Assembly: GCA_037147175.1 (NCBI GenBank)
Contig: JBAWVS010000008.1
Coordinates: forward strand, 1-61,516
Direction of reading: 5' to 3'
From: a bacterium
GTDB lineage: Bacteria; Cyanobacteriota; Vampirovibrionia; Gastranaerophilales; UBA9971
DNA: 61,516 nucleotides
The notes below the pieces were generated by a model that made no database searches, had not been told where the DNA came from, and was given only the letters and a program-made list of their open reading frames with translations. A program made the translations under genes and the position numbers. This document shows positions 1 through 61,516 of this stretch, piece by piece (position 1 is the stretch's first letter; every line of letters starts with the position of its first letter).

Positions 1-245
1 CTAGTATCATTATTTTCCAAAGGTGATAAATTAGCTTTTTCCCATATTGTTTTTAAATATTTTTCTCTTGATTTATGTGCATCTCTTGTTAATTTAGCTC
101 TTCTTCTTTTTCTGTTTTCTGAAACATCCGCATATTCTGGGTTTATAAGCATAGATTTTAATTGTTTTATCTCATGTCCGACCCTAACGCAAATTCCTAT
201 GCTGGCTTTACCTAAATCAAATCCAAAGACAAGCTTTTCTTTCAT
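1..245 (-). CDS. cas9: Type II CRISPR nuclease Cas9, N-terminal fragment cut by the window edge
   Basis: Too short for a routine ORF list because the gene runs off the left end; 81 codons are visible from an ATG at 245. Residues 7-17 (FGFDLGKASIG) match the RuvC-I motif, with Asp10 in the catalytic position. About 30 residues later comes an Arg/Lys-rich helix (NRKRRRAKLTRDAHKSREK) that fits the Cas9 bridge helix, followed by an IW...NL segment that recalls Francisella-type (II-B) Cas9. Cas9 is the RNA-guided DNA endonuclease of type II CRISPR systems; HNH and the remaining RuvC motifs would lie outside the window. An AAGGAA ribosome-binding site sits about 10 bases before the ATG. No CRISPR array or obvious tracrRNA is seen inside the window. 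A shorter RuvC/bridge-helix relative such as IscB is the main alternative. Confidence 0.8.
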   Translation of the reverse strand, partial: MKEKLVFGFDLGKASIGICVRVGHEIKQLKSMLINPEYADVSENRKRRRAKLTRDAHKSREKYLKTIWEKANLSPLENNDT

Positions 246-313
246 TATAATTATTCCTTATCTATAATAAGTATATTAAAGATTAATTTTCTCTTTATAA
301 TAATACTTCAAAT

Positions 314-342
314 ATAATATACAAATAAAACAAGTTTATCAA
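314..342 (-). promoter_or_regulatory. Putative sigma70-type promoter of cas9
   Basis: Reading leftwards, TTGATA (342-337) is followed after 17 bases by TATTAT (319-314). This places a start site near 306 and leaves a leader of about 60 bases before the Cas9 ATG at 245. It is a box match only; no start site has been mapped. Confidence 0.5.
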
Positions 343-456
343 AAATTTATGCAACTGTTATTTTCTGTTACTTTTTATACTTTTCTCTGTGGGATTTATA
401 TTTTTATCATGCCGGAATAAAAGCATATTAATTTGGTTTTAAATGCGGTCTGAATT

Positions 457-1296
457 TTAATCGCTGGTTAACTGGTCATTTGATATTTGCAAATTTTTGT
501 TTGAAGCTAAAAAATTATTTTTGGACACAATTTTTTTACCACTTTCTTTTTCAAGCTGTTTTCTTGCATCTCCTGCAATTTTACCGCCTTTTTTTGCAAC
601 TTCATGATTTTCCTTAAATCCCTGCGCATTTGTATTTTTTGCAATTTCTGTTGTTGAAGCTTCACCAAGCATTGAAAAGATAAGCTCAAGGTCGGTCATG
701 TGATCTCTTAAATTTTCTCTTTTTAATCCTTTATAATCTTTATATTCGGAAGGTGTCATTCCAAAAGTAGCTTTTGCAATTTCGGCAGTTAATATCGAAT
801 ATTCTTTACCTTCGATTACTCCTCTTTTTTGCCATTCGTCAGTTAATTCTTCCCTTAGGGCAATTCCTCTGACTCTTTTTTCAATCCAACTGTCAGGATA
901 ACCTTTGGCTTTGTATATTTCTTTCATTCTTTGCTGTGCAAGTTCAGGGTTTTCAATTTCCTGTACTCTTTCATAACCAACTTTTGCAAGCCATCTCTTG
1001 AATGGTTCAGCTTTTTTACTTGGAATAGATTGAATTATACGGAAAACACCTTCTGTATTTGAACAATTAAGTTTTTGTTTTCCGCCTTCTGTTTCAATTG
1101 GAAGGGGGGTGACAATTTGTCCCCACCCTTCGGAAAGTTCGGGATCTCTTTTTTTAATTTTTTTTATATAATCTGTCGGATTTATGCTGTCTGTTAATAC
1201 TTCTACAACATCAACAATTGAAAAATACCATTCATCATTATGAAGAGTTCTTCTGATTTTTTTTCCCTCGAAAATAATCAATTTATTTTCTGTCAT
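457..1296 (-). CDS. Bro-N domain (phage antirepressor-like) protein
   Basis: A 279-residue protein. The first ~110 residues (IIFEGKKIRRTLHNDEWYFS, then a block with TEGVFRIIQSIPSKKAEPFK) match the Bro-N domain found in phage and prophage antirepressors and in many accessory-genome proteins. The middle (~115-215) is a charged helical region that includes ELTDEWQKRG. The end is Lys/Asn-rich with a KKGGKIAGDARKQLE segment. Bro-N proteins bind DNA, and the role here is probably regulatory, but no target is evident. It lies behind cas9 on the same strand with 211 bases between them and is surrounded by gene debris, which fits an accessory or prophage-derived patch. The ATG at 1296 has only a weak upstream purine run (AAGGGTAAG). 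Confidence 0.8.
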   Translation of the reverse strand: MTENKLIIFEGKKIRRTLHNDEWYFSIVDVVEVLTDSINPTDYIKKIKKRDPELSEGWGQIVTPLPIETEGGKQKLNCSNTEGVFRIIQSIPSKKAEPFKRWLAKVGYERVQEIENPELAQQRMKEIYKAKGYPDSWIEKRVRGIALREELTDEWQKRGVIEGKEYSILTAEIAKATFGMTPSEYKDYKGLKRENLRDHMTDLELIFSMLGEASTTEIAKNTNAQGFKENHEVAKKGGKIAGDARKQLEKESGKKIVSKNNFLASNKNLQISNDQLTSD

Positions 1297-2202: not shown

Positions 2203-2239
2203 TTCTATGCGTATATTAAGTACACTTGGTGTGATAATA

Positions 2240-2419
2240 ATGTCAAAAACCGATAAAATACTAGAACTTACAAGAAATAAGACCAAAAGAACAACATTAA
2301 TGTTTAATCCTGAATTATGGAAATTATTTAAAACCGCTTGCGAACAAGATAATACAAAACCAACCCCAAAAATGGAAAAATGGATTTTAAATTATCTTGA
2401 GGAAAAAGGTTTGTTATAA
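2240..2419 (+). CDS. Small ribbon-helix-helix DNA-binding protein
   Basis: About 59 residues from ATG 2240. A short basic N terminus (MSKTDKILELTRNKTKR) precedes a beta strand (TTLMFNPELW) and two helices (KLFKTACEQDN; PKMEKWILNYLEEKG), the layout of CopG/ParD/ParG-type ribbon-helix-helix repressors. In-frame starts also exist at 2207 (ATG) and 2231 (GTG). I prefer 2240 because the operator repeats end at 2202, which leaves no leader for 2207. No toxin partner follows, so a plasmid-type or orphan regulator is more likely than a complete toxin-antitoxin pair. Confidence 0.6.
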   Translation: MSKTDKILELTRNKTKRTTLMFNPELWKLFKTACEQDNTKPTPKMEKWILNYLEEKGLL

Positions 2420-4478: not shown

Positions 4479-4868
4479 TCATACATATGTATTCTCTTTT
4501 AAATATATTTCACATTTTTCACAGGTTTTTTTACAGGTTTTTTGTGAAAATTCCCAACACTTTTTCTTTTGTCCGCTAAGTTCACAACATTTTGAACGCT
4601 TTTCTTGTGAACATTTTTTTAATTTCCAACAAGGAGTGAAATCAAGAAGTCTTTTAATGCCAGGTATACTCAAATTTTCTTCATGAATAAGCTTTCTCAA
4701 ACATTCAATTCTTGTTAAATCATTTTTTGAAAACATTCGTTTCCCGCCATGTCTTTGTGGCTTTATTAAACCTTCAGCCTCGTAAATTCTCAAGGTTCTT
4801 GGATGAACATTAAGAATTTGTGCGGCAATTCCCATTGAATATACAGGTAAATTTTCGTTAACTTCCAT
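4479..4868 (-). CDS. MerR-family transcriptional regulator with cysteine-rich tail
   Basis: 129 residues. Residues 8-75 form a MerR winged helix: YSMGIAAQILNVHPRTLRIY, EAEGLIKP, a wing with KRMFSKNDL, and IECLRKLIHEENLSI. This N-terminal part resembles HspR-type regulators. The last ~50 residues are unusual: about ten cysteines in CWKLKKCSQEKRSKCCEL, CWEFSQKTCKKTCEKC, enough to bind metal or an Fe-S cluster. It is transcribed divergently from a DUF5320/NifX-like pair, and a perfect 24-base palindrome lies between them, so it probably controls that pair and itself. The effector (metal, redox or cluster status) is inference. Confidence 0.8.
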   Translation of the reverse strand: MEVNENLPVYSMGIAAQILNVHPRTLRIYEAEGLIKPQRHGGKRMFSKNDLTRIECLRKLIHEENLSIPGIKRLLDFTPCWKLKKCSQEKRSKCCELSGQKKKCWEFSQKTCKKTCEKCEIYLKENTYV

Positions 4869-4932
4869 TTCTTATCACAATACCTATTACTATTGATTTT
4901 ATTATATCAGAAAATTTATAAATATTAAACTA

Positions 4933-4967
4933 ACTTGACAATTATAATTGTCAAGTGTTATTATAAT
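4933..4967 (+). promoter_or_regulatory. MerR-type operator/promoter with 20-base spacer
   Basis: A perfect 24-base palindrome spans 4933-4956 (arms ACTTGACAATTA). It contains TTGACA (4936-4941), which pairs with TATAAT at 4962-4967 across a 20-base spacer. Overlong 19-20 base spacers bound by a dimer on a palindrome are the hallmark of MerR-activated promoters. By symmetry the palindrome also gives a TTGACA reading toward the merR-type gene. Confidence 0.65.
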
Positions 4968-5012
4968 CGTAATTGTTATTATGAGTTGTTAGAAAAAATA
5001 AAGGAGACTACT

Positions 5013-5249
5013 ATGCCAAATTTTGACGGGAATGGTCCTTCAAGAACAGGACAGAGAAGAAGATGCAGAAAAGGCCGAATGATGAACGATAATAGTAGAA
5101 TCAAATTTAACAAAGAAACCGTTATAATCAGCTGCGGCAATTCTAAAATCAAATCAGCGACTGATGAGTTAAATTTAATAAAAGTAGAAAAACAGACTAT
5201 TGAATCAAGACTCAAAGCCCTTAATGAAAGAATTTTAGAACTAGAATAA
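5013..5249 (+). CDS. DUF5320-like small protein
   Basis: 78 residues. The N terminus MPNFDGNGPSRTGQRRRCR follows the MPGFDGTGP..G pattern of DUF5320 proteins, which often sit beside NifX/NifB-like genes in anaerobes. The C-terminal third (ELNLIKVEKQTIESRLKALN) is a coiled-coil helix. The ATG at 5013 is preceded by a good AAGGAGA site at 5001-5007, which decides against an earlier in-frame start at 4935. Function is unknown. It is the first gene of a two-gene unit with the NifX-like gene 21 bases downstream. Confidence 0.75.
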   Translation: MPNFDGNGPSRTGQRRRCRKGRMMNDNSRIKFNKETVIISCGNSKIKSATDELNLIKVEKQTIESRLKALNERILELE

Positions 5250-5270
5250 AAAAAGAAAGAGGAGATAAAA

Positions 5271-5621
5271 ATGAAATTTGCAATACCTACCGAAAATGAT
5301 AAATTATGTATACATTTTGGAAGCTGTAAGATATTTACTTTCATTGAAGTTGATGATAATTCAAAAGAGATTATTTCAAAAGAAACTATAGCTCCTTCAG
5401 GACAGTGCCATGAATATATGGTTCCATGGGTAAAAGAAAATGGCGCTAATATTATTATTGCAGGAGGAATGGGTGTACCTGCCCAAAAAATGCTTAAAGA
5501 GCAAGGAATTACAGTTATTATTGGAGCACCAACCGAAGCGCCTGAGCTTCTTGTTTCAAATTACTTGAACGGTGTTTTGAAAACAATTTCAAATTCTTGC
5601 AGTTGCGGCTGCAACCACTAG
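5271..5621 (+). CDS. Dinitrogenase iron-molybdenum cofactor-like (NifX/NifB C-terminal) protein
   Basis: 116 residues with the fold signature of the NifX/NafY/MTH1175 family: MKFAIPTENDKLCIHFGSCK at the start, IIAGGMGVPAQKMLKEQGI in the middle and a terminal Cys cluster (CSCGCNH). In nitrogen fixers relatives carry FeMo-cofactor intermediates; stand-alone versions in anaerobes are thought to handle Fe-S or Mo-S clusters. No nif genes are present, so a role in nitrogen fixation is not implied. The upstream site is AGGAGA. It is co-transcribed with the DUF5320-like gene from the MerR-type promoter and ends at a strong terminator. Confidence 0.85.
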   Translation: MKFAIPTENDKLCIHFGSCKIFTFIEVDDNSKEIISKETIAPSGQCHEYMVPWVKENGANIIIAGGMGVPAQKMLKEQGITVIIGAPTEAPELLVSNYLNGVLKTISNSCSCGCNH

Positions 5622-5657
5622 AGAGAATTTTTAAAAAACAAAAAATATCTTTATCTT

Positions 5658-5696
5658 AACGGATACAGTCAATAAAACTGTATCCGTTTTTATTTT
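5658..5696 (+). terminator. Intrinsic terminator
   Basis: A perfect 12-base stem (AACGGATACAGT / ACTGTATCCGTT) with a 7-base loop, followed by TTTTATTTT. It ends the DUF5320/NifX-like unit just before the convergent YaiI-family gene. Confidence 0.85.
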
Positions 5697-5700
5697 AGAT

Positions 5701-6156
5701 TTATTTGTATTTTAAACGTTTTACCAGCTGCTGATCAAATGTATTTGCGAATTTCTGTTTATCTTTAGTGCTAAAAGGTCTTGGTCCGCTTGTCTGAATA
5801 CCAGTATCCCTTAATTCACTCATAAAATTTCTTACAGAAAGCCTTTCTCCAATATTAGCGTGCGTAAAAAGAACGCCATGAACACTTATTACGACAATTC
5901 CTTTTGGAACAAGCATGGCGGCAAGAGGTATATCCTGAGTTATAACCAAATCCGCATTATTAGCGTTCTCAGCTATATATTCATCCGCCACATCCGGACC
6001 TTGAGAAACTTTTACTGTAGAAATAAAAGGCGATTGAGGAATTGAAATAATTTTATTCGAAACAAATACTGTTTGAATACACCGCTTGAGTGCAGCTTTT
6101 ATAATGATATCTTTAATTTCGGACGGACAGGCATCCGCATCAACCCATATATTCAT
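5701..6156 (-). CDS. YaiI/YqxD family protein (DUF188)
   Basis: 151 residues, close to the family's usual length. The diagnostic opening is MNIWVDADACPSEIKDII, followed by VITQDIPLAAML and the C-terminal GPRPFSTKDKQKFANTFD. The family has a PIN-like nuclease fold with conserved Asp residues, but its biochemical role is not established. It is monocistronic and convergent with the NifX-like gene. Confidence 0.9.
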   Translation of the reverse strand: MNIWVDADACPSEIKDIIIKAALKRCIQTVFVSNKIISIPQSPFISTVKVSQGPDVADEYIAENANNADLVITQDIPLAAMLVPKGIVVISVHGVLFTHANIGERLSVRNFMSELRDTGIQTSGPRPFSTKDKQKFANTFDQQLVKRLKYK

Positions 6157-6492
6157 TTAACTTCCACTATCTATTTTCAGACTTTTCAAATACTCATTAT
6201 AGAACCCTTAATCTCAATATTATTTTACATTAAATATATCCCCGAACTTTTATTTGGTCATTAAATTTTTTAAGTATGATACACTAAGTAACAAATAAAA
6301 AATCTTAACGTTTTCGTCATTCTGAGTAAAAATCGAAAAATACGAATATAGTTGAAGATTGAGAGTTTTATTTAACTCGGCATAACTGTTTAAAATTTTT
6401 GTTACCTACTTAATACTTGTCTTTTTTTAAACTTGTTTAATAATATAATTGGTAGTAAAAATATATTTTAATTTCAAAGAAAGAGAATCAAA
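6157..6492. other. Intergenic, holds promoter of the zinc-ribbon gene
   Basis: About 335 AT-rich bases between divergent genes. A TATAAT at 6444-6449 may be the -10 of the downstream gene, but no good -35 stands in front of it. Near 6319 the words CGTCATTCTGAG look like a worn copy of a widespread palindromic intergenic repeat. Nothing else is seen. Confidence 0.4.
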
Positions 6493-6825
6493 ATGTTCAA
6501 TCAAAATTTCACAGACCAAGAATTACAATGCGCAGATTGTGGGCAAGGTTTCACATTCAGTGCTGAAGATCAAGAATTTTACGCTCAAAAAAGATATTCT
6601 ACCCCAAAAAGATGTGCATCTTGCAGAGCAAACAGAAAAGCGAATGACTCACGCGGTGGCGGCGGCGGATATGGCGGCGGCGGCAGAGGCGGATACGGTG
6701 GCGGATCCAGCAGACCTCAGTTCAGTGCTGTTTGCGCTGGTTGCGGCATAGAAACAACTGTTCCTTTTGAGCCTAAAGGCGATAGACCTGTTTACTGTTC
6801 TGATTGTTTCAGAAACAACAGATAA
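6493..6825 (+). CDS. Double zinc-ribbon protein with Gly-rich linker
   Basis: 110 residues. The first half has CADCGQGF...CASCRANRK, matching the probable zinc-ribbon family (zf-trcl). A linker of GGGGYGGGGRGGYGGGS follows. The second half has CAGC, exactly 17 residues, then CSDC, the CxxC-x17-CxxC motif. So there are two independent zinc sites joined by a flexible RGG-like linker, a layout seen in nucleic-acid-binding proteins. The target is unknown. The ATG at 6493 has a weak AAAGAAAGAGAA site upstream. The gene is monocistronic and ends at a terminator. Confidence 0.85.
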   Translation: MFNQNFTDQELQCADCGQGFTFSAEDQEFYAQKRYSTPKRCASCRANRKANDSRGGGGGYGGGGRGGYGGGSSRPQFSAVCAGCGIETTVPFEPKGDRPVYCSDCFRNNR

Positions 6826-6846
6826 AAATATAACTCTATAATATTT

Positions 6847-6900
6847 AAAGAAAATCTCTTAAAGTAAATTACTACCGCTTTAAAGAGATTTTTCTTTTTA
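6847..6900. terminator. Bidirectional intrinsic terminator
   Basis: AAAGAAAATCTCTTAAAG pairs with CTTTAAAGAGATTTTTCTTT around a 13-base loop. A- and T-rich flanks serve both the zinc-ribbon gene and the convergent recQ. Confidence 0.8.
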
Positions 6901-6909
6901 TTATCAAAT

Positions 6910-8724
6910 TTATCCATTTATGGCATTTAAAAAAGCTAAGCCGTATTTTTTCAGCTTGTGTTCCCCCACTCCCGATATTTCTGACATATCATCAAGGGTT
7001 TCGGGTTTGTTATTTACCATTTCTATTAGGGTTTTGTCATTAAAAATAATATATGGCGGCATATTTTCATCACGAGCGAAAGATAATCTGATTTTTTTAA
7101 GTTCATTGAACAATTCAACATCAGCGTCAGCAGTTAGTACGGCTTTTTTTGCAGGAGCTGGTTTTTTAAGTTTAACTTTGCTTTCTAAAATAAATTTTCT
7201 TAATTCAACCTTTTGCTTGCCCCTTAAAACATCATTAGCCTCGAGATTGGTTTTTAGCGTTGAATATTGCATGTCCATCTCGACAAATCCTAATATGGCA
7301 ACTTGCCTGATAATAGACTTCCATTGAGATTCTGAGACATCTTTGCCGATACCAAAAGTGCTTAGTTTGTCATGCTTGAATTTTTTCACTTTTTCGTCAT
7401 CTTTGCCCAACAAAATATTTATTATATGCCCTCCCCCGAAGCCATACCTGTCTGTTTGGGTTCTATAAATACAGGACAAAACTTTTTGGACATCAACCGT
7501 TGCATCATAAGTTACAGGCGGTTCTAAACAGTTATCACAATTTTTACAATCGTTTTTTAATTCTTCTGCAAAATAATCCAATAAAATCCTTCTTCTGCAA
7601 TTAACTGTTTCAACATAGCCTATCAATGTGTTTAATTTTTGATGTTCAATTCTTTTCTGCTCTGGAGATGACGTAGAGCTTTCTATAAATTGTTTTAACT
7701 GAACAATATCTTTTAACCCGTAAACCATCCATGCATCAGCCGGCAAACCGTCACGACCTGCACGACCTGTTTCTTGATAATAAGATTCTACGCTTTTAGG
7801 CAAGTCAAGATGTGCGACAAATCTTACATCAGGTTTGTCAATTCCCATACCGAAAGCAATTGTTGCAACCATTATCATTGATTCTTCTTTAATAAATTTT
7901 TCCTGATTTTTCTCTCGTATTTTTTTATCTAAACCTGCATGATAAGGCAGAGCGTTAAATCCTTCTTTTTTTAAATACGCTGCGACTTCTTCAACCCTTT
8001 TTCTTGAAATACAATAAACAATACCTGAATCATTCCGATGATCTTCTTTAATAAAATTTAAAAGCTGTTTTTTTTCGTTATCTTTAATTTTTATTGTGTA
8101 TTCAATATTTGGTCTGTCAAAGCTGGATACAAAAACTTTTCCGTTTTCAAGATTAAGATTTTTTATAATATCTATTCTCGTTAGTTCATCAGCAGTAGCT
8201 GTTAATGCAATTCTTGGAACATTGGGGAATATTTCTTTTAGTGCTGAAAATTTGGTGTATTCAGGTCTAAAATCGTGTCCCCATTGCGATACACAATGAG
8301 CTTCATCAATTGCAAAAAGTGAAATTTTAGATTTTTTCAAAAGATTTAAAAAGCCTTCTGTATTCAATCTTTCAGGTGAAACATATACCAGATCCAGCTC
8401 ATTATTAAATATTTGTTCCTCAACCAAATTTGATTTTTCGGCGTTTAAAGTTGAATTCAAAACAGAAGCTCTGACACCCGCTTGTTTTAGAGCGTTGACC
8501 TGATCCTGCATAAGTGCTATTAGAGGAGAAATAACAACTGTAATTCCTTCAAAGCAAAGAGCGGGTATTTGAAAACAAAGAGATTTTCCTCCGCCTGTAG
8601 GCATCAAAACAAGACCATCATTTCCATTTAAAATATGTTCAATGATTTCCTGTTGTTTGCCACGAAATGTTTTATATCCAAAAACCTTATATAAAATTTC
8701 TTGAGGATTTTTTAAAGACAGCAA
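6910..8724 (-). CDS. recQ: ATP-dependent DNA helicase RecQ
   Basis: 604 residues, the usual length. It carries Walker A (LMPTGGGKSLCFQIPAL), the DEAH box in AIDEAHCVSQWGHDFRPEY, helicase motif VI (QETGRAGRDG), a zinc-binding RQC region with four cysteines (CRRRIL...CKNCDNCLEP) and a C-terminal HRDC domain (ISGVGEHKLKKYG). RecQ unwinds DNA 3' to 5' in recombination and repair. The start is a TTG at 8724; no ATG lies in frame between it and the preceding stop. Confidence 0.95.
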   Translation of the reverse strand: MLSLKNPQEILYKVFGYKTFRGKQQEIIEHILNGNDGLVLMPTGGGKSLCFQIPALCFEGITVVISPLIALMQDQVNALKQAGVRASVLNSTLNAEKSNLVEEQIFNNELDLVYVSPERLNTEGFLNLLKKSKISLFAIDEAHCVSQWGHDFRPEYTKFSALKEIFPNVPRIALTATADELTRIDIIKNLNLENGKVFVSSFDRPNIEYTIKIKDNEKKQLLNFIKEDHRNDSGIVYCISRKRVEEVAAYLKKEGFNALPYHAGLDKKIREKNQEKFIKEESMIMVATIAFGMGIDKPDVRFVAHLDLPKSVESYYQETGRAGRDGLPADAWMVYGLKDIVQLKQFIESSTSSPEQKRIEHQKLNTLIGYVETVNCRRRILLDYFAEELKNDCKNCDNCLEPPVTYDATVDVQKVLSCIYRTQTDRYGFGGGHIINILLGKDDEKVKKFKHDKLSTFGIGKDVSESQWKSIIRQVAILGFVEMDMQYSTLKTNLEANDVLRGKQKVELRKFILESKVKLKKPAPAKKAVLTADADVELFNELKKIRLSFARDENMPPYIIFNDKTLIEMVNNKPETLDDMSEISGVGEHKLKKYGLAFLNAING

Positions 8725-8801
8725 TTTTAAACGTCCAAATTATGATTCACTAAAATAAATATTAACATGAACCTCTCTTTCAACATTACGGTTTAACTTT
8801 T

Positions 8802-8829
8802 TTGTTACCTGATTAAAAAATGCTATACT
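8802..8829 (+). promoter_or_regulatory. Putative promoter of the polysaccharide locus
   Basis: TTGTTA (8802-8807), a 16-base spacer and TATACT (8824-8829), about 30 bases before the first glycosyltransferase start. This is the only good promoter match in front of a run of same-strand genes extending to about 15.7 kb. Confidence 0.45.
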
Positions 8830-8859
8830 TATAACGTAGTTTAAGGCTTGTGTAGAATA

Positions 8860-9654
8860 ATGAGCAATCCAAAAGTATCTGTAATAATCCCTTGTTACAA
8901 TCAGGGCATCTATATAGATGAATGCGTCGAATCTGTTTTGTGTCAGACATTTGATGACTTTGAGATAATTATTATCAATGACGGTTCCAGCGATGATTAT
9001 ACAAACAAAATTTTATCCGACTACAATAAACCAAAAACAACAGTTATAAATTCAGTTAATCAAGGGCCTTCCGTGGCAAGAAACACAGCAATCGTCCATG
9101 CTAAAGGCGAATACATACTTCCTCTTGATGCTGACGACAAACTGGCTCCCGAATATCTAGAAAAAGCTTTAAAGGTTTTTGAACAACAGCCTGAAATATC
9201 CGTTGTTTACTCGTTAGGTCAATACTTTGGCGCAATAAACAGGCTTTGTTCTTTTAAACCGTATAAATTTCCTGATTTTTTACTGGGGAACGTTGTTTTT
9301 ATAACAGCTTTATACAAAAAATCCGACTGGGAAAAATACAAAGGCTACAACAAAAACATGATATATGGCTGGGAAGATTTTGATTTCTGGCTGTATTTTG
9401 TAGCTGACAATAAGAAGTTTTACAGAATTGAAGAAACTCTTTTTTATTACAGGCGGCTTGAGATTTCAAGAACAACCGGTGTTAAGGACGAAAAGAGAAT
9501 ACACTGTTTTATACAGATTTATAAAAATCACCCTATGCTTTATTTTAAAAACATTTTCAAAATACTGAAACTTTATTTTTCACAAAAACACAATTATTAC
9601 AGACTAATTATAAGATACATTAAATATTTGAAGCTTATTTCCTCAAAAAAATGA
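8860..9654 (+). CDS. Glycosyltransferase family 2
   Basis: 264 residues with a GT-A fold: VSVIIPCYNQGIYIDECVES, IIINDGSSDD for nucleotide binding and LPLDADDKL as the DxD-type metal site. A basic, aromatic C-terminal tail (KIYKNHP, LKLYFSQKHNYY) may touch the membrane. It likely adds a sugar during O-antigen or capsule synthesis. The ATG at 8860 is chosen over an in-frame TTG four codons earlier. It is first in the polysaccharide locus, 39 bases before rfbF. Confidence 0.88.
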   Translation: MSNPKVSVIIPCYNQGIYIDECVESVLCQTFDDFEIIIINDGSSDDYTNKILSDYNKPKTTVINSVNQGPSVARNTAIVHAKGEYILPLDADDKLAPEYLEKALKVFEQQPEISVVYSLGQYFGAINRLCSFKPYKFPDFLLGNVVFITALYKKSDWEKYKGYNKNMIYGWEDFDFWLYFVADNKKFYRIEETLFYYRRLEISRTTGVKDEKRIHCFIQIYKNHPMLYFKNIFKILKLYFSQKHNYYRLIIRYIKYLKLISSKK

Positions 9655-9693
9655 TAATATAAATTGTAGTTATCATTTTGTTTGGAAAAAATT

Positions 9694-10470
9694 ATGAAAG
9701 CTGTTATTTTAGCCGGCGGTCTTGGGACAAGGATTAGCGAAGAATCCCATTTAAAACCAAAGCCGATGATTGAAATAGGCGGAAAGCCTATCTTGTGGCA
9801 TATTATGAAAGTTTATTCACATTACGGAATAAATGATTTTATTATATGTACGGGTTATAAAGGCTATGTTATTAAAGAATATTTCGCAAACTACTTTCTT
9901 CATCAATCAGATATTACTTTTGATACTTGCAGTAATAATATGAAACTACATAACCACCAATCCGACCCCTGGAAAATAACTGTTGTAGACACAGGCGACA
10001 AGACAAATACAGGCGGAAGATTAAAACGGATTAAACCCTATATAGAGAAAGATGAAACTTTTTGCTTAACCTACGGTGACGGGGTAAGCAATGTAAACAT
10101 AAAAGAATTAATTGATTATCATTATGAACGCAAAGTTACTGCAACAGTTACGGCTGTCCAGCCACCGGGCCGTTATGGTTTGCTTGAAATTAAAGACGGA
10201 ATGGTTAAAGATTTCCAAGAAAAGCCAAAAGGCGACGGCAACTGGATAAATGGGGGATTTTTTGTATTCGGGTCTAAAATTTTTGATTATCTTGACTCAG
10301 ATATAACCTCTCTTGAATCAGAGCCAATAAAGCTTCTTGCACAAAAAAATGAGCTTGCCGCTAGAAAACATAATGATTTTTGGCTTCCCATGGACACAAT
10401 GAGGGATAAAATAAGGCTCGAAGAGCTATGGGAAAGCGGTAATGCTCCGTGGAAAATCTGGAAGGACTAA
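9694..10470 (+). CDS. rfbF: Glucose-1-phosphate cytidylyltransferase
   Basis: 258 residues. Nucleotidyltransferase signature MKAVILAGGLGTRISEES, KPMIEIGGKPILWHIM, the metal-binding LTYGDGVSN, GRYGLLEI, and the typical RfbF ending DFWLPMDTMRDKIRLEELW. It makes CDP-glucose from CTP and glucose-1-phosphate, the entry to CDP-dideoxyhexoses. The expected partner RfbG (CDP-glucose 4,6-dehydratase) is not in the window, so either it lies elsewhere or CDP-glucose is used differently. The ATG at 9694 is favoured over a TTG at 9682. The next gene begins 12 bases after the stop. Confidence 0.93.
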   Translation: MKAVILAGGLGTRISEESHLKPKPMIEIGGKPILWHIMKVYSHYGINDFIICTGYKGYVIKEYFANYFLHQSDITFDTCSNNMKLHNHQSDPWKITVVDTGDKTNTGGRLKRIKPYIEKDETFCLTYGDGVSNVNIKELIDYHYERKVTATVTAVQPPGRYGLLEIKDGMVKDFQEKPKGDGNWINGGFFVFGSKIFDYLDSDITSLESEPIKLLAQKNELAARKHNDFWLPMDTMRDKIRLEELWESGNAPWKIWKD

Positions 10471-10481
10471 AAGGAAAACAG

Positions 10482-11033
10482 ATGAAGTTTACGGAAACAA
10501 AATTAAAAGGTGCTTATATTATAGAGATAGAACCTCTTGAAGATGAGAGAGGTTTTTTTTCACGCTGTTTTTGTAAAAAAGAATTTGAAAAATTGGGCTT
10601 AAATTCTGATATTGTTCAGTCAAACATATCTTTTAACCACAAAGCCGGTACTTTAAGAGGTATGCACTATCAAAAACCGCCTTACGAAGAAGTAAAAATT
10701 ATCAGTTGTCATGTTGGAGCTATTTATGACGTAATTGTAGATATCAGACCAGCTTCAGAAACCTATTTACAATGGTTTGGAGTAGAATTATCTGCTGAAA
10801 ACCGTAAGATGTTGTACATTCCAACAGAATTTGCTCATGGATATCAGACGTTAGTTGATAAAACTTTGGTATCTTATAATGTTACAAATTTCTATGCTCA
10901 AGGCTACGAAGCTGCTATCAGCTGGAATGATCCTTTGATAGGAATAAAATGGCCTGAATGCGAAAATAGAATTATTTCAGAAAAAGACTCCAAAAATAAA
11001 ACTTTTAGTGAATTCAAGGAGAAATATCAATGA
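10482..11033 (+). CDS. dTDP-4-dehydrorhamnose 3,5-epimerase-like (RfbC family) cupin
   Basis: 183 residues matching the RfbC cupin family: EDERGFFSRCF near the start, SNISFNHKAGTLRGMHYQ (the His in LRGMHYQ is conserved), VGAIYDVIVDIRPAS, and PTEFAHGYQTL. Such enzymes epimerise 4-keto sugars on a nucleotide carrier. Next to rfbF it may act on a CDP-linked rather than a dTDP-linked sugar, which is inference. AAGGA at 10471-10475 supports the ATG at 10482. Its stop overlaps the aminotransferase start by ATGA, so the two are translationally coupled. A decayed relative of its C terminus lies about 1.1 kb downstream. Confidence 0.88.
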   Translation: MKFTETKLKGAYIIEIEPLEDERGFFSRCFCKKEFEKLGLNSDIVQSNISFNHKAGTLRGMHYQKPPYEEVKIISCHVGAIYDVIVDIRPASETYLQWFGVELSAENRKMLYIPTEFAHGYQTLVDKTLVSYNVTNFYAQGYEAAISWNDPLIGIKWPECENRIISEKDSKNKTFSEFKEKYQ

Positions 11034-12157
11034 CGATAAGACTTTTTAAACCCTGTGTAGGGGAAGAAGAGCTTGAAAATATTAAGGCTGCATTTTCTCG
11101 GGCATGGCTCGGACTTGGTCCACAGGTAAAAGAATTTGAACATAAATGGGCGGATTTTATCGGCTGCAAAGAAGCAATAGGCGTGAACTCCTGCACGGCA
11201 GCTCTTCATCTGGCTTTATCCGCATACAAGTTCTCTCCGGGGAAAAAGGTACTGGTTCCTGTTATGACGTTTGCTGCTACTGCAATGGCGGCTTTATATA
11301 ATAACCTTGAACCGGTTTTTGTAGATATAGATGAAGAAACTTTAGGGATTTCGCTTGAAGATCTTGATAAAAAATATGATAAAGACTGTGTAGCTGTTAT
11401 ACCTGTTCATTTTGGCGGGCATCCCGTCGAAATGGATAAATTAATGAACTGGGCAAAATCGAAAAACTTGAAAGTAATTGAAGACTGTGCCCATACAGCC
11501 GGTGGTGAATATAAAGGTAAAAAACTCGGAACCTGGGGAGATATCGGCTGCTTCAGTTTTGAAGAAAAAAAATGTATGACATCAGGTGACGGCGGAATGA
11601 TTTGTTCTGACGATCAGGAATTAATTAAACCTCTAAGACATTCAAGATGGATAGGTATAAATAAAGACACCTGGCAAAGACTGAGTGAAAACACGGACAG
11701 TACTCCTAACGTTCTTCACTGGTATTATGAAATATCCGATATAGGCTATAAATACAACATGAATGATCTTGCCGCCTCTATTGCACTTGCACAGCTCTCA
11801 AAACTTGATTATATGAATCAGAAAAGAAGAAATATTCTCCAAAAATATATAGACGGTGTCAAGGATTTGAATTTTGCAAAAATAGGTTTGCCTTATCAAC
11901 TCGAAAACTCGTCTTACCATATATTTATGCTCCGGATTCAGGAAAGGGACAAATTCCTTAAATACATGACTGAAAAAGAAATTGCGACAGGAGTTCATTA
12001 TATGCCTTTAACTATGCATCCGCTGTTTTATAAGTACAAAAACGAAACACCTGTGGCTGACCGTATTTGGAAAGAGTTTGTAACGCTTCCGTTATTCCCT
12101 GACCTGAAAAATGAAGAGACTGAATATGTTATAAATGCAATTAAAAGCTATAAATAG
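11030..12157 (+). CDS. DegT/DnrJ/EryC1/StrS family sugar aminotransferase
   Basis: 375 residues. PLP-dependent type I fold: VNSCTAALHLALSAY, PVMTFAATAMAALYN, VIEDCAHTAGGEYKGKKLG, and the Schiff-base lysine in CFSFEEKKCMTSGDGGMI, aligning with the family's SFxxxKxxxxGEGG. The C-terminal half (KYNMNDLAASIALAQL, GVHYMPLTMHP) is also typical. It probably transfers an amino group to a 4-keto nucleotide sugar made by the upstream enzymes, although vinylogous dehydratase relatives (usually His in place of Lys) exist; the lysine here argues for a transaminase. The start overlaps the upstream stop by four bases. Confidence 0.9.
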   Translation: MTIRLFKPCVGEEELENIKAAFSRAWLGLGPQVKEFEHKWADFIGCKEAIGVNSCTAALHLALSAYKFSPGKKVLVPVMTFAATAMAALYNNLEPVFVDIDEETLGISLEDLDKKYDKDCVAVIPVHFGGHPVEMDKLMNWAKSKNLKVIEDCAHTAGGEYKGKKLGTWGDIGCFSFEEKKCMTSGDGGMICSDDQELIKPLRHSRWIGINKDTWQRLSENTDSTPNVLHWYYEISDIGYKYNMNDLAASIALAQLSKLDYMNQKRRNILQKYIDGVKDLNFAKIGLPYQLENSSYHIFMLRIQERDKFLKYMTEKEIATGVHYMPLTMHPLFYKYKNETPVADRIWKEFVTLPLFPDLKNEETEYVINAIKSYK

Positions 12158-12282
12158 AAAACGTTTATAATACCGATTATTCGGACGGTGTAAGATGGGA
12201 TGACCCTGTTTATAATAAAAAGTGTTGTAAGTGTATTAACAGAATTGTTTCATGTAATGATATAGTTTTAAAATCGGAGTAA
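12154..12282 (+). pseudogene. Remnant of an RfbC-type epimerase C terminus
   Basis: Immediately after (and overlapping) the aminotransferase stop, one frame reads ENVYNTDYSDGVRWDDPVYN and ends NRIVSCNDIVLKSE at TAA 12280-12282. It lines up with the C terminus of the intact epimerase 1.1 kb upstream (AAISWNDPLIGIKWPECENR). Only about 42 codons remain, without a start. The remnant's 3' end supplies the GGAG ribosome-binding site for the methyltransferase gene that follows. It is most simply the scar of a deletion or recombination that removed an epimerase. Confidence 0.7.
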
Positions 12283-12285
12283 ATA

Positions 12286-13437
12286 ATGGATTTAATTAAA
12301 TGTTGTCCTATCTGTAAATCAGAGAAAATCGAGATGTTTTTGGAGCGTGATAATGTTCCTGTTATTCAAAACTTTGTTTTGAAAGAACGTGAAACTGCCC
12401 GAAATATAGATAGAGGTGATATAAAATTAGCAATATGTAATAATTGTGAATTTATTTTTAATACAAGCTTTGATTTGTCTAAGCTTAAATATGGAGACAA
12501 TTATGATAATGCTTCGACATTTTCCAAATATTATCAAGATTATATTGAAAAATTAACTAATAATCTGCTTTATGAAGAAAAAGTTCAAAATTGCAAAATA
12601 ATAGAAATTGGCGCAGGCAATGGGGCTTTTCTTCATAAATTAGTTGAAAAAGATGAATCAAATAATTCGGGTATCGGTTTTGATCCAAGTTTTAAAGGTG
12701 ATTTTCAGGAAATAGAGAATAAACTGATTTTCAGGAAAGAATTTTATGGAGAAAAACATGCAAATTTAAATGCAGATGTTGTAATATTAAGACATGTTCT
12801 GGAAGTTATTCCTGAATTGTTTGAAGTTTTAAAAACTATAAGAAAAAATTTAAGCAATTCTACCAATGCTAAAGTTTATCTTGAAACTCCTAATATCGAA
12901 TGGAAATTGGAAAACAAAGCCATTTGGGATTATTGTTATGAATATTTTGGATATTTTAGTGAAAAATCTCTTAAATATGCTTTTGAAGCCGCAGGTTTTA
13001 AAGTTGACTACATAAAAAAAATTTTTGAAGGACAGTATTTATGGATAAAAGCAAGTGTTGATAAAGAAAATTCTTTAAAAGATTTGGCATTAAATTATGT
13101 AAAAACAGAAAAACAAATTTTAGCGAAACTTAAATTACAACTTGAAAATTTAAAACAAAACGGAAATATTGTTGTATGGGGCGCAGCAGGTAAAGGCGTT
13201 ACTTTTTTAAATTTAGTCGACAAAGACTGTAAACTTGTTGATTTTTTAGTCGATATAAACCCTAATAAACAAGGCAAACATATTGTAGGGACAGGGCATA
13301 TAATAATTGCCCCAGAAGAAATCCACAAATATAATATAAAAACAGTTATAATCATGAACTCGAACTACAAAAATGAAATTGAAAATATAATAAAAAATTT
13401 GAATTTAAAATTAAATCTAGTAGAAATGGAGTTATAA
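12286..13437 (+). CDS. Class I SAM-dependent C-methyltransferase (NovU/TylCIII-like)
   Basis: 383 residues in three parts. A zinc-binding N terminus (CCPICKSEK ... CNNCEF) comes first, then a SAM-binding core with motif I IIEIGAGNGAFL and the GFDPS acidic loop. The C-terminal domain contains VVWGAAGKGVTFLN, typical of sugar C-methyltransferases that act on nucleotide-linked 4-keto sugars to make branched deoxysugars. It fits the preceding sugar-modifying genes. GGAG lies 7 bases before the ATG. Confidence 0.88.
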   Translation: MDLIKCCPICKSEKIEMFLERDNVPVIQNFVLKERETARNIDRGDIKLAICNNCEFIFNTSFDLSKLKYGDNYDNASTFSKYYQDYIEKLTNNLLYEEKVQNCKIIEIGAGNGAFLHKLVEKDESNNSGIGFDPSFKGDFQEIENKLIFRKEFYGEKHANLNADVVILRHVLEVIPELFEVLKTIRKNLSNSTNAKVYLETPNIEWKLENKAIWDYCYEYFGYFSEKSLKYAFEAAGFKVDYIKKIFEGQYLWIKASVDKENSLKDLALNYVKTEKQILAKLKLQLENLKQNGNIVVWGAAGKGVTFLNLVDKDCKLVDFLVDINPNKQGKHIVGTGHIIIAPEEIHKYNIKTVIIMNSNYKNEIENIIKNLNLKLNLVEMEL

Positions 13438-13511
13438 AAGCTGTAATTATACGGTACCAGTTGTACAATTATAATTATTTTGGCAGTTTATATAAAATTG
13501 AGAGGATACAC

Positions 13512-14066
13512 ATGTTTGTAAACTTAACTGATAATATACCTTTGAATTCGAGAATATGTATATATGGATCATTAAAAGTAGGCATTTTCCTTAAGAGACT
13601 TCTTGAATTAACCAGAAAAGATGTAAAAATTGTGTGTTTCTTAGATTCTTTTAAATCAGGCATTATTGATAATCTTGAGATCATAAACATAGCAGATATT
13701 AAAACAATTGAATCTGAATATGACTTGATTGTAATTACATCAGCCAATCTTCATTCGATACATGATATTTTGCAAACTTATAATATTCAAAATTTTACCT
13801 ATATTAACCATAAAGCTTTTGACTGGCTGGTTAATTTTATTGATAATGTTATATGTTTTGAACATCCTTCAGTCATAAAGATTTCTGAAGATTTTATGAC
13901 TAATAATTCGGAAAAGTTCAATAAAGTAAAATCTATTCTTGAATCTGATGAAGATAGAAAACTCTATGATCTTGTAATAAATGCAAAATCCAATAAAGAA
14001 GGCTATGATAAACTTTTTGAGTATATTATTAAAACTTTGGATAAGGCAAATACTGAATATTTTTAA
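13512..14066 (+). CDS. N-terminal half of a split FkbM-type protein (Rossmann-like domain)
   Basis: 184 residues from ATG 13512, which has GAGAGGA 5-6 bases upstream. The first ~110 residues look like a small nucleotide-binding fold (RICIYGSLKVGIFLKRLLEL, IVCFLDSFKSG, DLIVITSANLH), as placed in front of many FkbM methyltransferases. The last 70 residues are helical and end ...NTEYF at TAA 14064. The same frame stays open after this stop and at once gives the methyltransferase motif, so this is probably the first half of one gene interrupted by a nonsense codon. A separate small protein is the alternative. Confidence 0.7.
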   Translation: MFVNLTDNIPLNSRICIYGSLKVGIFLKRLLELTRKDVKIVCFLDSFKSGIIDNLEIINIADIKTIESEYDLIVITSANLHSIHDILQTYNIQNFTYINHKAFDWLVNFIDNVICFEHPSVIKISEDFMTNNSEKFNKVKSILESDEDRKLYDLVINAKSNKEGYDKLFEYIIKTLDKANTEYF

Positions 14067-14084
14067 TTTATTAATCAGGAGGCA

Positions 14085-14681
14085 ATTAAAGTTGTTTTTG
14101 ATTGTGGCGCAAATGATGGAGATACATCTGTAAAATTTTTAAATCATTTTCCAAAAATAGAAAAAATTTATGCATTTGAACCGCTATATAAAATGTTTGC
14201 TAAAAAACCATTTTCAACAACTATTTCTAATTCTGATAAAATTGAAATGTTTGAATATGCTCTTTGGGATAGCAAAAAAACAATACAGTTAAAAAATCAA
14301 GGATTTGGTTCTCACCTGATATTTGATAATAACCGGGAAAATAATTCGAAAAATAAATTTAAAGATATTGAAACAGAACTATATCACTCAGTTCAAACTA
14401 TTTCGATAGACGAATTTATGCGTGAAAATAACATAAATAAACTTGATTTTGCTAAATTTGATGTAGAAGGGGCTGAATTAGGTGCGTTAATAGGCGCTAA
14501 AAACACTCTTATAAAAGACAGACCACAATTGGCAGTATGTTTATATCACAAAAATGAAGATTTTTATGAAATTCCATTATATTTAAACAGTATACTAAGT
14601 AATTATACTTTTAAATTCAGTCAGGAATTTCGGACTTCACTTTTATATGCTATTCCTAATGAACTATATAATTCAAATTAA
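14085..14681 (+). CDS. FkbM-family methyltransferase, C-terminal half without a standard start
   Basis: It is in the same frame as the upstream half. Reading past TAA 14064 gives FINQEAIKVVFDCGANDGD, i.e. SAM motif I (VVFDCGANDGDTS), then IYAFEPLYKMF, IDEFMRENNINKLDFAKFD, VEGAELGALIGAKN and a Tyr-rich end. This is a complete FkbM catalytic domain (sugar O-methylation). A strong AGGAGG stands at 14077-14082, but the codon where Met is expected (before KVVFDCG) is ATT at 14085, only two bases away. The first ATG, at 14193, would remove the SAM site. So it is either a broken gene or one starting at AUU. Confidence 0.6.
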   Translation: MKVVFDCGANDGDTSVKFLNHFPKIEKIYAFEPLYKMFAKKPFSTTISNSDKIEMFEYALWDSKKTIQLKNQGFGSHLIFDNNRENNSKNKFKDIETELYHSVQTISIDEFMRENNINKLDFAKFDVEGAELGALIGAKNTLIKDRPQLAVCLYHKNEDFYEIPLYLNSILSNYTFKFSQEFRTSLLYAIPNELYNSN

Positions 14682-60511: not shown

Positions 60512-60567
60512 TTGAAAACAGACAGTACCTGTACTATAATATGTACAGGTACAATAAACAGTACAGG
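60512..60567 (+). promoter_or_regulatory. Promoter and YefM-type operator of the toxin-antitoxin operon
   Basis: TTGAAA (60512-60517), a 17-base spacer and TATAAT (60535-60540) make a near-consensus promoter. Perfect inverted repeats GTACCTGTAC (60525-60534) and GTACAGGTAC (60543-60552) flank the -10 box, and a third half-site GTACAGG (60561-60567) overlaps the ribosome-binding site. The TGTAC/GTACA cores match the known recognition words of YefM-type antitoxins, implying autorepression. Confidence 0.8.
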
Positions 60568-60579
60568 AGAAAAATAACA

Positions 60580-60843
60580 ATGGAAGCAATTTCATATACT
60601 TCTTTTAGGGCAAACTTAGCAAAAAAAATGAAAGAAATTTGCGATAATCATCTTGGAATTATAGTAACAAGAAAAGACAAAGAATCTGTTGTTGTTTTTT
60701 CACTGGAAGATTATCAGGCATTAGAGGAAACCGCTTACCTCTTAAAAAGCCCAAAAAACGCAAAAGAATTAATGGAATCTATCGAAGAATTTGAAAAGGG
60801 AGATGTTGTTGAAATGGAACTTTTCGAAAATTATGAAGATTAA
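60580..60843 (+). CDS. yefM: YefM/Phd-family antitoxin
   Basis: 87 residues. ISYTSFRANLAKKMKEICDN is the Phd/YefM DNA-binding N terminus, VTRKDKESVVVFSLEDYQAL the dimer core, and the acidic C terminus (EFEKGDVVEMELFENYED) would wrap the toxin. AGGAGA lies 10 bases before the ATG at 60580. It overlaps the toxin gene by 11 bases. Confidence 0.93.
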   Translation: MEAISYTSFRANLAKKMKEICDNHLGIIVTRKDKESVVVFSLEDYQALEETAYLLKSPKNAKELMESIEEFEKGDVVEMELFENYED

Positions 60844-61087
60844 GTTCACTCAAAAAGCCCAAAAGCAATATGAATACTGGAAAGAAAATGACTTAAAAAT
60901 TCTTAAAAAAATTAATGAGCTTATTAAAGATATTCAAAAAACACCGTTTGAAGGTTTAGGTAAACCTGAATCACTTAAGTTTAATCTTAACGGGTTCTGG
61001 TCAAGAAGAATAAATTATGAACACAGATTAGTTTATAAAATTGAGGATGAATCCATAATTATTCTTCAGTGCAGATATCATTACTAA
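60833..61087 (+). CDS. yoeB: Txe/YoeB-family mRNA interferase toxin
   Basis: 84 residues, the typical size. KIKFTQKAQKQYEYWKENDL at the start; GKPESLKFNLNGFWSRRINY, EHRLVYKIEDES and the C-terminal CRYHY carry the conserved catalytic Glu, Arg, His and Tyr. YoeB cleaves mRNA at the ribosome. The ATG at 60833 lies inside the antitoxin gene, so translation is coupled. All key residues look intact. Confidence 0.94.
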   Translation: MKIKFTQKAQKQYEYWKENDLKILKKINELIKDIQKTPFEGLGKPESLKFNLNGFWSRRINYEHRLVYKIEDESIIILQCRYHY

Positions 61088-61399: not shown

Positions 61400-61516
61400 G
61401 TTATTAACAAGAGTATTTATAGTTTTCCTACCTTTTTTTGAAAATATTTCTAATTCCTCTCTATTAACAGGAGTTACGCAAAGTAATTTAAAATATTAAA
61501 AATAAAGAATCCTGAC

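What the first reader, a model, noticed from the sequence alone, without database searches (positions are those of the whole stretch)
1..342. Cas9 gene running off the left edge, next to phage-like genes
RuvC-I (GFDLGKASIG, Asp10) and an Arg-rich bridge helix are clear, and the spacing and IW..NL after the helix recall type II-B. A promoter with 17-base spacing precedes it. A type II system in this lineage would be notable, and the visible upstream 211 bases could hold tracrRNA.
Basis: partly seen in the sequence, partly recalled or inferred. Interest (0 to 1): 0.7.

Follow-up and report, generated by a model that had tools for sequence, protein, structure and literature searches.

The report
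Cas9 locus split by insertion sequences
The gene fragment at the edge of this piece of DNA is the start of a genuine Cas9, the cutting enzyme of a bacterial CRISPR immune system; the rest of that system lies on two other pieces of the same genome, where two nested jumping genes have landed in it, and one of its 34 stored guides appears to match small single-stranded-DNA phages.

Summary
Window 3-245 (minus strand, 81 aa, running off the contig start) is the N-terminus of a Cas9. The rest was found in the same genome: contig C90 carries the remainder (HNH, RuvC-II/III), cas1 and cas2. The C8 and C90 ends overlap by 5 bases, in frame, giving a 1040-aa Cas9. Contig C13 carries the tracrRNA/anti-repeat and a 35-repeat, 34-spacer array.

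C90 and C13 are joined by two nested insertion sequences, each placed by an exact target duplication: a DDE element in the 3' end of cas2, and an IS256-family element inside it. The system is type II: cas9-cas1-cas2, no cas4 in the locus, array read against the cas genes, a promoter-like -10 box in every repeat. That is the II-C plan, not II-B; NCBIfam names the Cas9 family 'Cas9d'. The predicted tracrRNA is beyond cas2, not in window 246-456.

Relatives occur in about a tenth of sampled genomes of the order (Gastranaerophilales by name) and in Verrucomicrobiota, but in none of nine family neighbours. Spacer 19 matches the gokushovirus major capsid gene; five spacers of a relative match one microvirus.

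A new member of a known kind. Activity is untested; the insertions may have impaired adaptation.

The parts
3..245 (-). First 81 codons of cas9 (RuvC-I Asp10, bridge helix), cut by the contig end; continues on contig C90 4290..1408 (minus)
   Evidence: ORF; NF049971 E=9e-24; the remainder is the only other strong hit in the genome, profile 93-981, 809 bits; 5-base in-frame overlap ACTAG; gap-free alignment across the junction with five relatives
246..456 (-). Intergenic region upstream of cas9; may hold its promoter (TTGATA-17-TATTAT at 342-314). No tracrRNA or anti-repeat found here
   Evidence: Promoter-like sites at chance level; repeat pairing at background level
457..1296 (-). Neighbouring Bro-N/antirepressor-like gene (279 aa); not part of the CRISPR system
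   Evidence: PF02498 E=1e-11; phrog_15286 E=1e-92; not seen next to cas9 in five relatives
61469..61516 (+). Right end of contig C8: terminal sequence of an insertion sequence with the same inverted-repeat start (CAGGAGTTACGCA) as the element that interrupts cas2
   Evidence: Shared 14-15-mer with C90 and the terminal repeat read on C13; family assignment by inspection

Best explanation
Window 3-245 is the 5' end of the cas9 gene of a type II CRISPR-Cas locus of II-C layout: cas9-cas1-cas2, then tracrRNA and a CRISPR array read in the opposite direction. Inferred mechanism: each 36-nt repeat ends in an extended -10 box (TGTTATAAT) and starts a short crRNA from the preceding repeat; the tracrRNA, with its own promoter between the array and cas2, pairs with the repeat part; Cas9 loaded with this pair cuts matching phage DNA with HNH and RuvC. 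In this genome a DDE insertion sequence has replaced the last 13 residues of Cas2 and a second, IS256-family element has landed inside it. cas9 and cas1 remain readable, and tracrRNA and array are intact on the far side, so interference can in principle still work in trans, while acquisition of new spacers is doubtful. Shown by sequence: gene content, catalytic motifs, repeat, anti-repeat, both target-site duplications, the loss of the Cas2 tail. Inferred: expression, cleavage, repeat promoters, phage defence.
For: Cas9 remainder at 809 bits on C90; HNH_4 7.7e-18 and RuvC_III 1.3e-6; Asp10, Glu502, Asp581/His582/Asn605, His733/Asp736 present, with the aligned positions invariant or nearly so in 43 relatives. 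Gap-free alignment across the contig junction. cas1 TIGR03639 4.5e-47 and cas2 TIGR01573 4.8e-16; the only Cas1 in the genome. Exact 8-base duplication CAAATATC links C90 and C13; exact 7-base duplication TCAATAA flanks the inner element; full IS256-type copies elsewhere show the same ends and 8-base duplications (PF00872). 35 repeats, 34 identical and one with a single change. Anti-repeat at -29.7 kcal/mol, in the same place as in five relatives. Repeat -10 box: 22 of 33 distinct repeats match TATAAT at 5 of 6 or better, 2.8% in shuffles. Same operon in most of about 80 loci. Spacer 19 against gokushovirus capsid genes; five spacers of relative L059 against one microvirus, above every shuffled set.
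Against: The C8/C90 junction rests on a 5-base overlap plus frame and alignment, not on reads spanning it; an unassembled insert there would break cas9. The IS256 copy between C90 and C13 is inferred from its two ends, not read through. Cas2 has lost a C-terminal motif (KQMTFW) conserved in the relatives compared. No exact protospacer was found in IMG/VR for the two spacers searched. No expression data.
Confidence: 0.88

Rival explanations
1. The locus is already dead: the nested insertion sequences, and possibly another insert at the C8/C90 break, have disabled it, and it is decaying.
For: Insertions in the 3' end of cas2 separate the cas genes from tracrRNA and array; the Cas2 tail is replaced; the contig break inside cas9 is unexplained.
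Against: 960 codons of cas9 on C90 and all of cas1 are open, catalytic residues are intact, 34 of 35 repeats are identical, the anti-repeat is intact, both target duplications are still exact, so the insertions look recent.
Confidence: 0.25
2. It should be filed as type II-D (Cas9d), as NCBIfam names the protein, rather than as II-C-like.
For: NF049971 'CRISPR_Cas9d' at 809 bits against a cut-off of 375. The 2025 classification pools former II-C2 and compact Cas9d into II-D despite size differences (PMC12669027).
Against: Loci of II-D as defined there carry cas4; none lies in this locus. Cas1 fits the Neisseria-type type II model. Solved Cas9d of 747 aa scores 42.5 bits against 113-118 for II-C Cas9s. 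The zinc-ribbon motifs described for Cas9d/Cas9c2 (PMC9755519) are absent: no CxxC in this Cas9. By fold, II-C and small II-A Cas9s rank above the II-D structure 9lgi.
Confidence: 0.25
3. The C8 fragment and the C90 gene are parts of two different cas9 genes.
For: No read spans the junction; the overlap is only 5 bases.
Against: One N-terminal and one C-terminal hit in the whole genome, complementary in extent; in frame; no gap against five relatives at the junction.
Confidence: 0.06
4. An IscB/TnpB-type transposon nuclease or another RuvC-like protein.
For: Only RuvC-I and the bridge helix are visible in the window.
Against: Remainder with HNH, RuvC-II/III, cas1, cas2, tracrRNA and array; IscB model only 16.9 bits against a cut-off of 175.
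Confidence: 0.01

Closest known systems
Type II-C CRISPR-Cas (Neisseria meningitidis, Campylobacter jejuni)
   Same: Minimal cas9-cas1-cas2 set, array transcribed against the cas operon (PMC3936727), promoters inside repeats (PMC8616872), 36-nt repeats and about 30-nt spacers, Cas9 of about 1000 aa; closest solved Cas9s by sequence
   Different: Only about 150 bits over the RuvC-II/HNH/RuvC-III core and 16% identity by fold; a separate clade; this copy carries two nested insertion sequences
NCBIfam NF049971 'Cas9d' family
   Same: Full-length match far above cut-off
   Different: The published II-D hallmarks that could be tested (cas4 in the locus, zinc ribbons, closeness to the solved 747-aa Cas9d) are not met
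Vampirovibrionia (Melainabacteria) and Verrucomicrobiota relatives found here (L011-L015, L048-L124)
   Same: Same gene order; repeats ending in TATAAT in all distinct repeats of the Melainabacteria-type group; anti-repeat between cas2 and array in the five compared
   Different: 43-46% Cas9 identity at best segment; this genome's Cas9 is a separate deep branch with its own repeat sequence
   Same: RuvC-I plus Arg-rich bridge helix, array read against cas genes
   Different: No cas4 in the locus; Cas9 of 1040 aa

Membership tests
Type II CRISPR-Cas | Cas9 with RuvC-I/II/III and HNH and their catalytic residues | tested here: met
Type II CRISPR-Cas | cas1 and cas2 adjacent | tested here: met
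   the cas2 3' end is altered by an insertion
Type II CRISPR-Cas | CRISPR array with matching anti-repeat/tracrRNA | tested here: met
   C13: 35 repeats; duplex -29.7 kcal/mol; linked to C90 by an exact target duplication
Type II CRISPR-Cas | RNA-guided DNA cleavage | not testable with these tools
   Needs biochemistry
Type II-C | cas9-cas1-cas2 only, no csn2 or cas4 in the operon | tested here: met
   ORFs of C90; same order in relatives; PF01930 hits lie only on other contigs. csn2 was not searched by profile; no ORF lies between cas2 and array in the relatives
Type II-C | Array transcribed opposite to cas genes | tested here: inconclusive
   Inferred from repeat orientation (GTTTT... at the crRNA end), -10 box and anti-repeat; no RNA data
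Type II-C | Cas9 groups with II-C in a Cas9 tree | tested here: inconclusive
   II-C Cas9s score best in PDB sequence searches; no tree with all subtypes could be made; by fold small II-A SaCas9 ranks first
Type II-D (Cas9d) | cas4 in the adaptation module | tested here: not met
   definition from PMC12669027
Type II-D (Cas9d) | Zinc-ribbon motifs in REC and near RuvC-II | tested here: not met
   No CxxC in this Cas9; description from PMC9755519
Type II-D (Cas9d) | Match to NCBIfam NF049971 | tested here: met
   809 bits, cut-off 375
Type II-B | cas4 next to cas9-cas1-cas2 | tested here: not met
IscB | Match to the IscB model, no adaptation genes | tested here: not met
   16.9 bits, cut-off 175; cas1 and cas2 present

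The most novel reading that the evidence does not exclude
This Cas9 clade of Vampirovibrionia and Verrucomicrobiota is a separate type II lineage that fits neither published II-C nor II-D cleanly, makes one crRNA per repeat from repeat-borne promoters, and is used largely against small single-stranded-DNA microviruses, with guides that pair with the packaged (sense) strand: all six matching spacers (five sites) equal the antisense strand.
Probability: 0.15. Interest if true: 0.6.

Novelty: new member of a known kind. Interest (0 to 1): 0.38.

Why it matters
Gastranaerophilales are common, uncultured gut relatives of cyanobacteria whose phages are little known. The spacers tie them to gokushoviruses, a very common group of gut phages that mostly lack known hosts (the last point is my own knowledge). 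The locus also offers an uncharacterised Cas9 clade of about 1000 aa, with a predicted tracrRNA and repeat ready to test. The full-text searches made found no paper describing Cas9 in this order, in a library that lacks most subscription journals. The case also shows how a fragment at a contig edge can be completed exactly through insertion-sequence target duplications.

Tried and rejected
tracrRNA in window 246-456: rejected by duplex energy against random pieces. Relatives' repeat in the own genome: none; this array has its own repeat. First reading of the C90 end as tracrRNA: dropped when the same 54 bases turned up at other contig ends and proved to be the end of an IS256-type element. A circular 66-kb element made of C8 and C90, suggested by shared motifs at contig ends: dropped, the motif is an insertion-sequence end. 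Fragment search in genome contigs by a single protein: nothing; the alignment worked. Protospacers: exact spacers 1 and 19 in IMG/VR, none; arrays of L048, L050 and L056 against phages gave only AT-rich noise. PAM: not derivable, because the matched phages are diverged relatives of the real targets. Virus-borne relatives: one distant match in IMG/VR, of the Verrucomicrobiota type (L155), and one weak hit among phage records.

Full report
1. The observation. The minus-strand ORF at window 3-245 runs off the left edge. The window is the first 61,516 bases of contig C8 of a 2.66-Mb, 109-contig genome, so the cut is an assembly end. The 81 residues match NCBIfam NF049971, a Cas9 model, at positions 2-74 of 986 with E = 9e-24. 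Pfam and PADLOC give nothing for so short a piece.

2. The rest of the gene. Searching the genome with NF049971 gave one strong hit, contig C90 (4290 bases), profile 93-981 at 809 bits, plus the window fragment at 2-74; a third, weak hit (27.7 bits, C27) covers only profile 535-597. Read in the gene's direction, C8 ends ...GATACTAG and C90 begins ACTAGATT...: a 5-base overlap that keeps the frame and gives 1040 aa. Aligned with five full relatives at 44-46% identity there is no gap across the junction. Asp10, Glu502, Asp581/His582/Asn605 and His733/Asp736 are present, and the aligned positions are invariant or nearly so in 43 relatives. Pfam finds HNH_4 and RuvC_III.

3. Neighbours. Downstream on C90 lie cas1 (314 aa; TIGR03639, E = 4.5e-47) and cas2 (115 aa; TIGR01573, E = 4.8e-16). 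It is the only Cas1 in the genome. No cas4 lies at the locus; PF01930 matches elsewhere lie on other contigs, most of them in frames of about 1000 aa.

4. Two nested insertion sequences. C90 ends, about 70 bases after the cas2 stop, in 54 bases that recur at other contig ends. They are the 3' end of a 1375-bp IS256-family element, whose full copies on C16 and C55 have 8-base target duplications (PF00872). The duplication expected here, CAAATATC, occurs once next to the element's other end, at C13:28-61. C13 then shows a second, DDE-type element (PF01609) ending TGCGTAACTCCTG, the inverse of CAGGAGTTACGCA inside the cas2 frame of C90. Both outer flanks carry TCAATAA. So the DDE element entered the 3' end of cas2 and the IS256-type element entered the DDE element. 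The empty-site reading of cas2 ends ...KQMTFW, as in all five relatives compared except for one letter in one of them (KQMTLW); the present gene ends ...TGVTQHKLKSCYQ.

5. tracrRNA and array. C13 continues with an anti-repeat and 35 repeats (GTTTTGAATCTACCGTCTTTTCAAATATGTTATAAT; 34 identical, one with a single change) and 34 spacers of 29-32 nt. Repeat-to-anti-repeat pairing is -29.7 kcal/mol; the best in window 200-460 is -11.3, and random 191-base pieces of the window average -14.2 with a minimum of -18.5. In five relatives the anti-repeat also sits between cas2 and array, next to a conserved hairpin. Direction (array and tracrRNA against the cas genes) is inferred from repeat orientation and -10 boxes; there are no RNA data.

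6. Promoters in repeats. Of 33 distinct repeats, 22 end in at least 5 of 6 letters of TATAAT, against 2.8% of shuffled repeats; every repeat of the Melainabacteria-type group scores 6 of 6, most with the TGn extension. Repeat-borne promoters that give single crRNAs without RNase III are known from type II-C (PMC8616872). Here this is a prediction.

7. Subtype. Layout and gene set match II-C as described in PMC3936727: cas9-cas1-cas2, array opposite. In PDB sequence searches II-C Cas9s score best (113-118 bits; 747-aa Cas9d 42.5; likewise). An AlphaFold2 model of the relative in L048 (mean pLDDT 84.7) is a full Cas9; Foldseek ranks SaCas9, ThermoCas9, St1Cas9 and Nme1Cas9 above the II-D structure 9lgi, with low whole-chain TM-scores throughout, so it does not settle the subtype. 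NCBIfam nevertheless calls the family Cas9d. Published II-D loci share cas4 (PMC12669027) and Cas9d proteins carry zinc ribbons (PMC9755519); neither is found here. PMC11706934 states that II-D lacks cas1, cas2 and cas4, so the literature is itself not uniform. I favour 'II-C-like' and leave the formal subtype open.

8. Distribution. 37 of 383 sampled genomes of the order exceed the cut-off, but within the own family only this genome of ten does. Named relatives are Gastranaerophilales, Caenarcaniphilales, Termititenax, Verrucomicrobiota, Elusimicrobia and others. The Cas9 tree puts this protein in the Vampirovibrionia-type clade (38 rows, SH-aLRT 100) as a deep branch of its own; it is a quick tree and some rows have long branches. 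In G069 (L012) the system lies with a tyrosine integrase between a tRNA-Gly and a second copy of that tRNA's 3' end (98% over 48 nt), an integrative island; in the other loci this integrase was not found, apart from L084, which is the same locus.

9. Targets. Spacer 19 matches the antisense strand of the major capsid gene of gokushoviruses: 86 phage records, the listed ones all microviruses, best E = 4e-4 for the single spacer. In the six aligned, the 21 or so bases at the PAM-proximal end match fully or nearly so, and most mismatches lie at the far end. These records are homologous, so they count as one event, and 34 spacers were tried; taken alone this is suggestive. In the relative L059, five of 44 spacers match Dulem virus 215 (Microviridae) at 77-93%, against at most 70% in five shuffled sets. 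Other arrays gave no clear targets.

10. Verdict. A real type II CRISPR-Cas9 locus, completed across three contigs and carrying two nested insertion sequences. It is a new member of a known kind. Its activity, and whether the insertions have silenced it, are open.

Noticed in passing
L012 (G069:C5:46000-62000), 4694-14333: A cas9-cas1-cas2-array locus inside an island of about 9.6 kb: tRNA-Gly at 4694-4765, a tyrosine integrase at 4883-5953 and a 48-base copy of the tRNA's 3' end at 14286-14333 (98%). A mobile element that appears to carry a CRISPR-Cas system.
   Followed up: partly
L059 array (10524-13600) and PP511401.1 (L159, L160): Five spacers of one Gastranaerophilales genome match a single microvirus; spacers 15 and 42 aim at the same site. 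All equal the antisense strand, so guides would pair with the sense strand.
   Followed up: partly
G000 genome: C16:84-1459, C55:about 11354-12728, ends of C34, C40, C90, C99, C100: An IS256-family element in about seven copies explains several contig breaks of this assembly.
   Followed up: partly
window 61469-61516: The right contig end is the end of an insertion sequence with terminal repeat CAGGAGTTACGCA, related to the one in cas2.
   Followed up: partly
window 60541-61087: Two adjacent small ORFs (100 and 98 aa) that look like a YefM/YoeB-type toxin-antitoxin pair, judged by reading the sequence only.
   Followed up: no
genomes G015, G032, G068, G076, G091, G161 and others: A second family of about 1020-1040-aa Cas9-like proteins in the same order, matching NF049971 only over the HNH/RuvC core (about 150 bits).
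   Followed up: no
G371:C214 and G174:C5: cas9 copies of this family with in-frame stops or split frames, probably decaying.
   Followed up: no
window 2207-2419 (+): Small 70-aa protein with a weak, below cut-off ParG match (E=0.0018), possibly a ribbon-helix-helix regulator.
   Followed up: no
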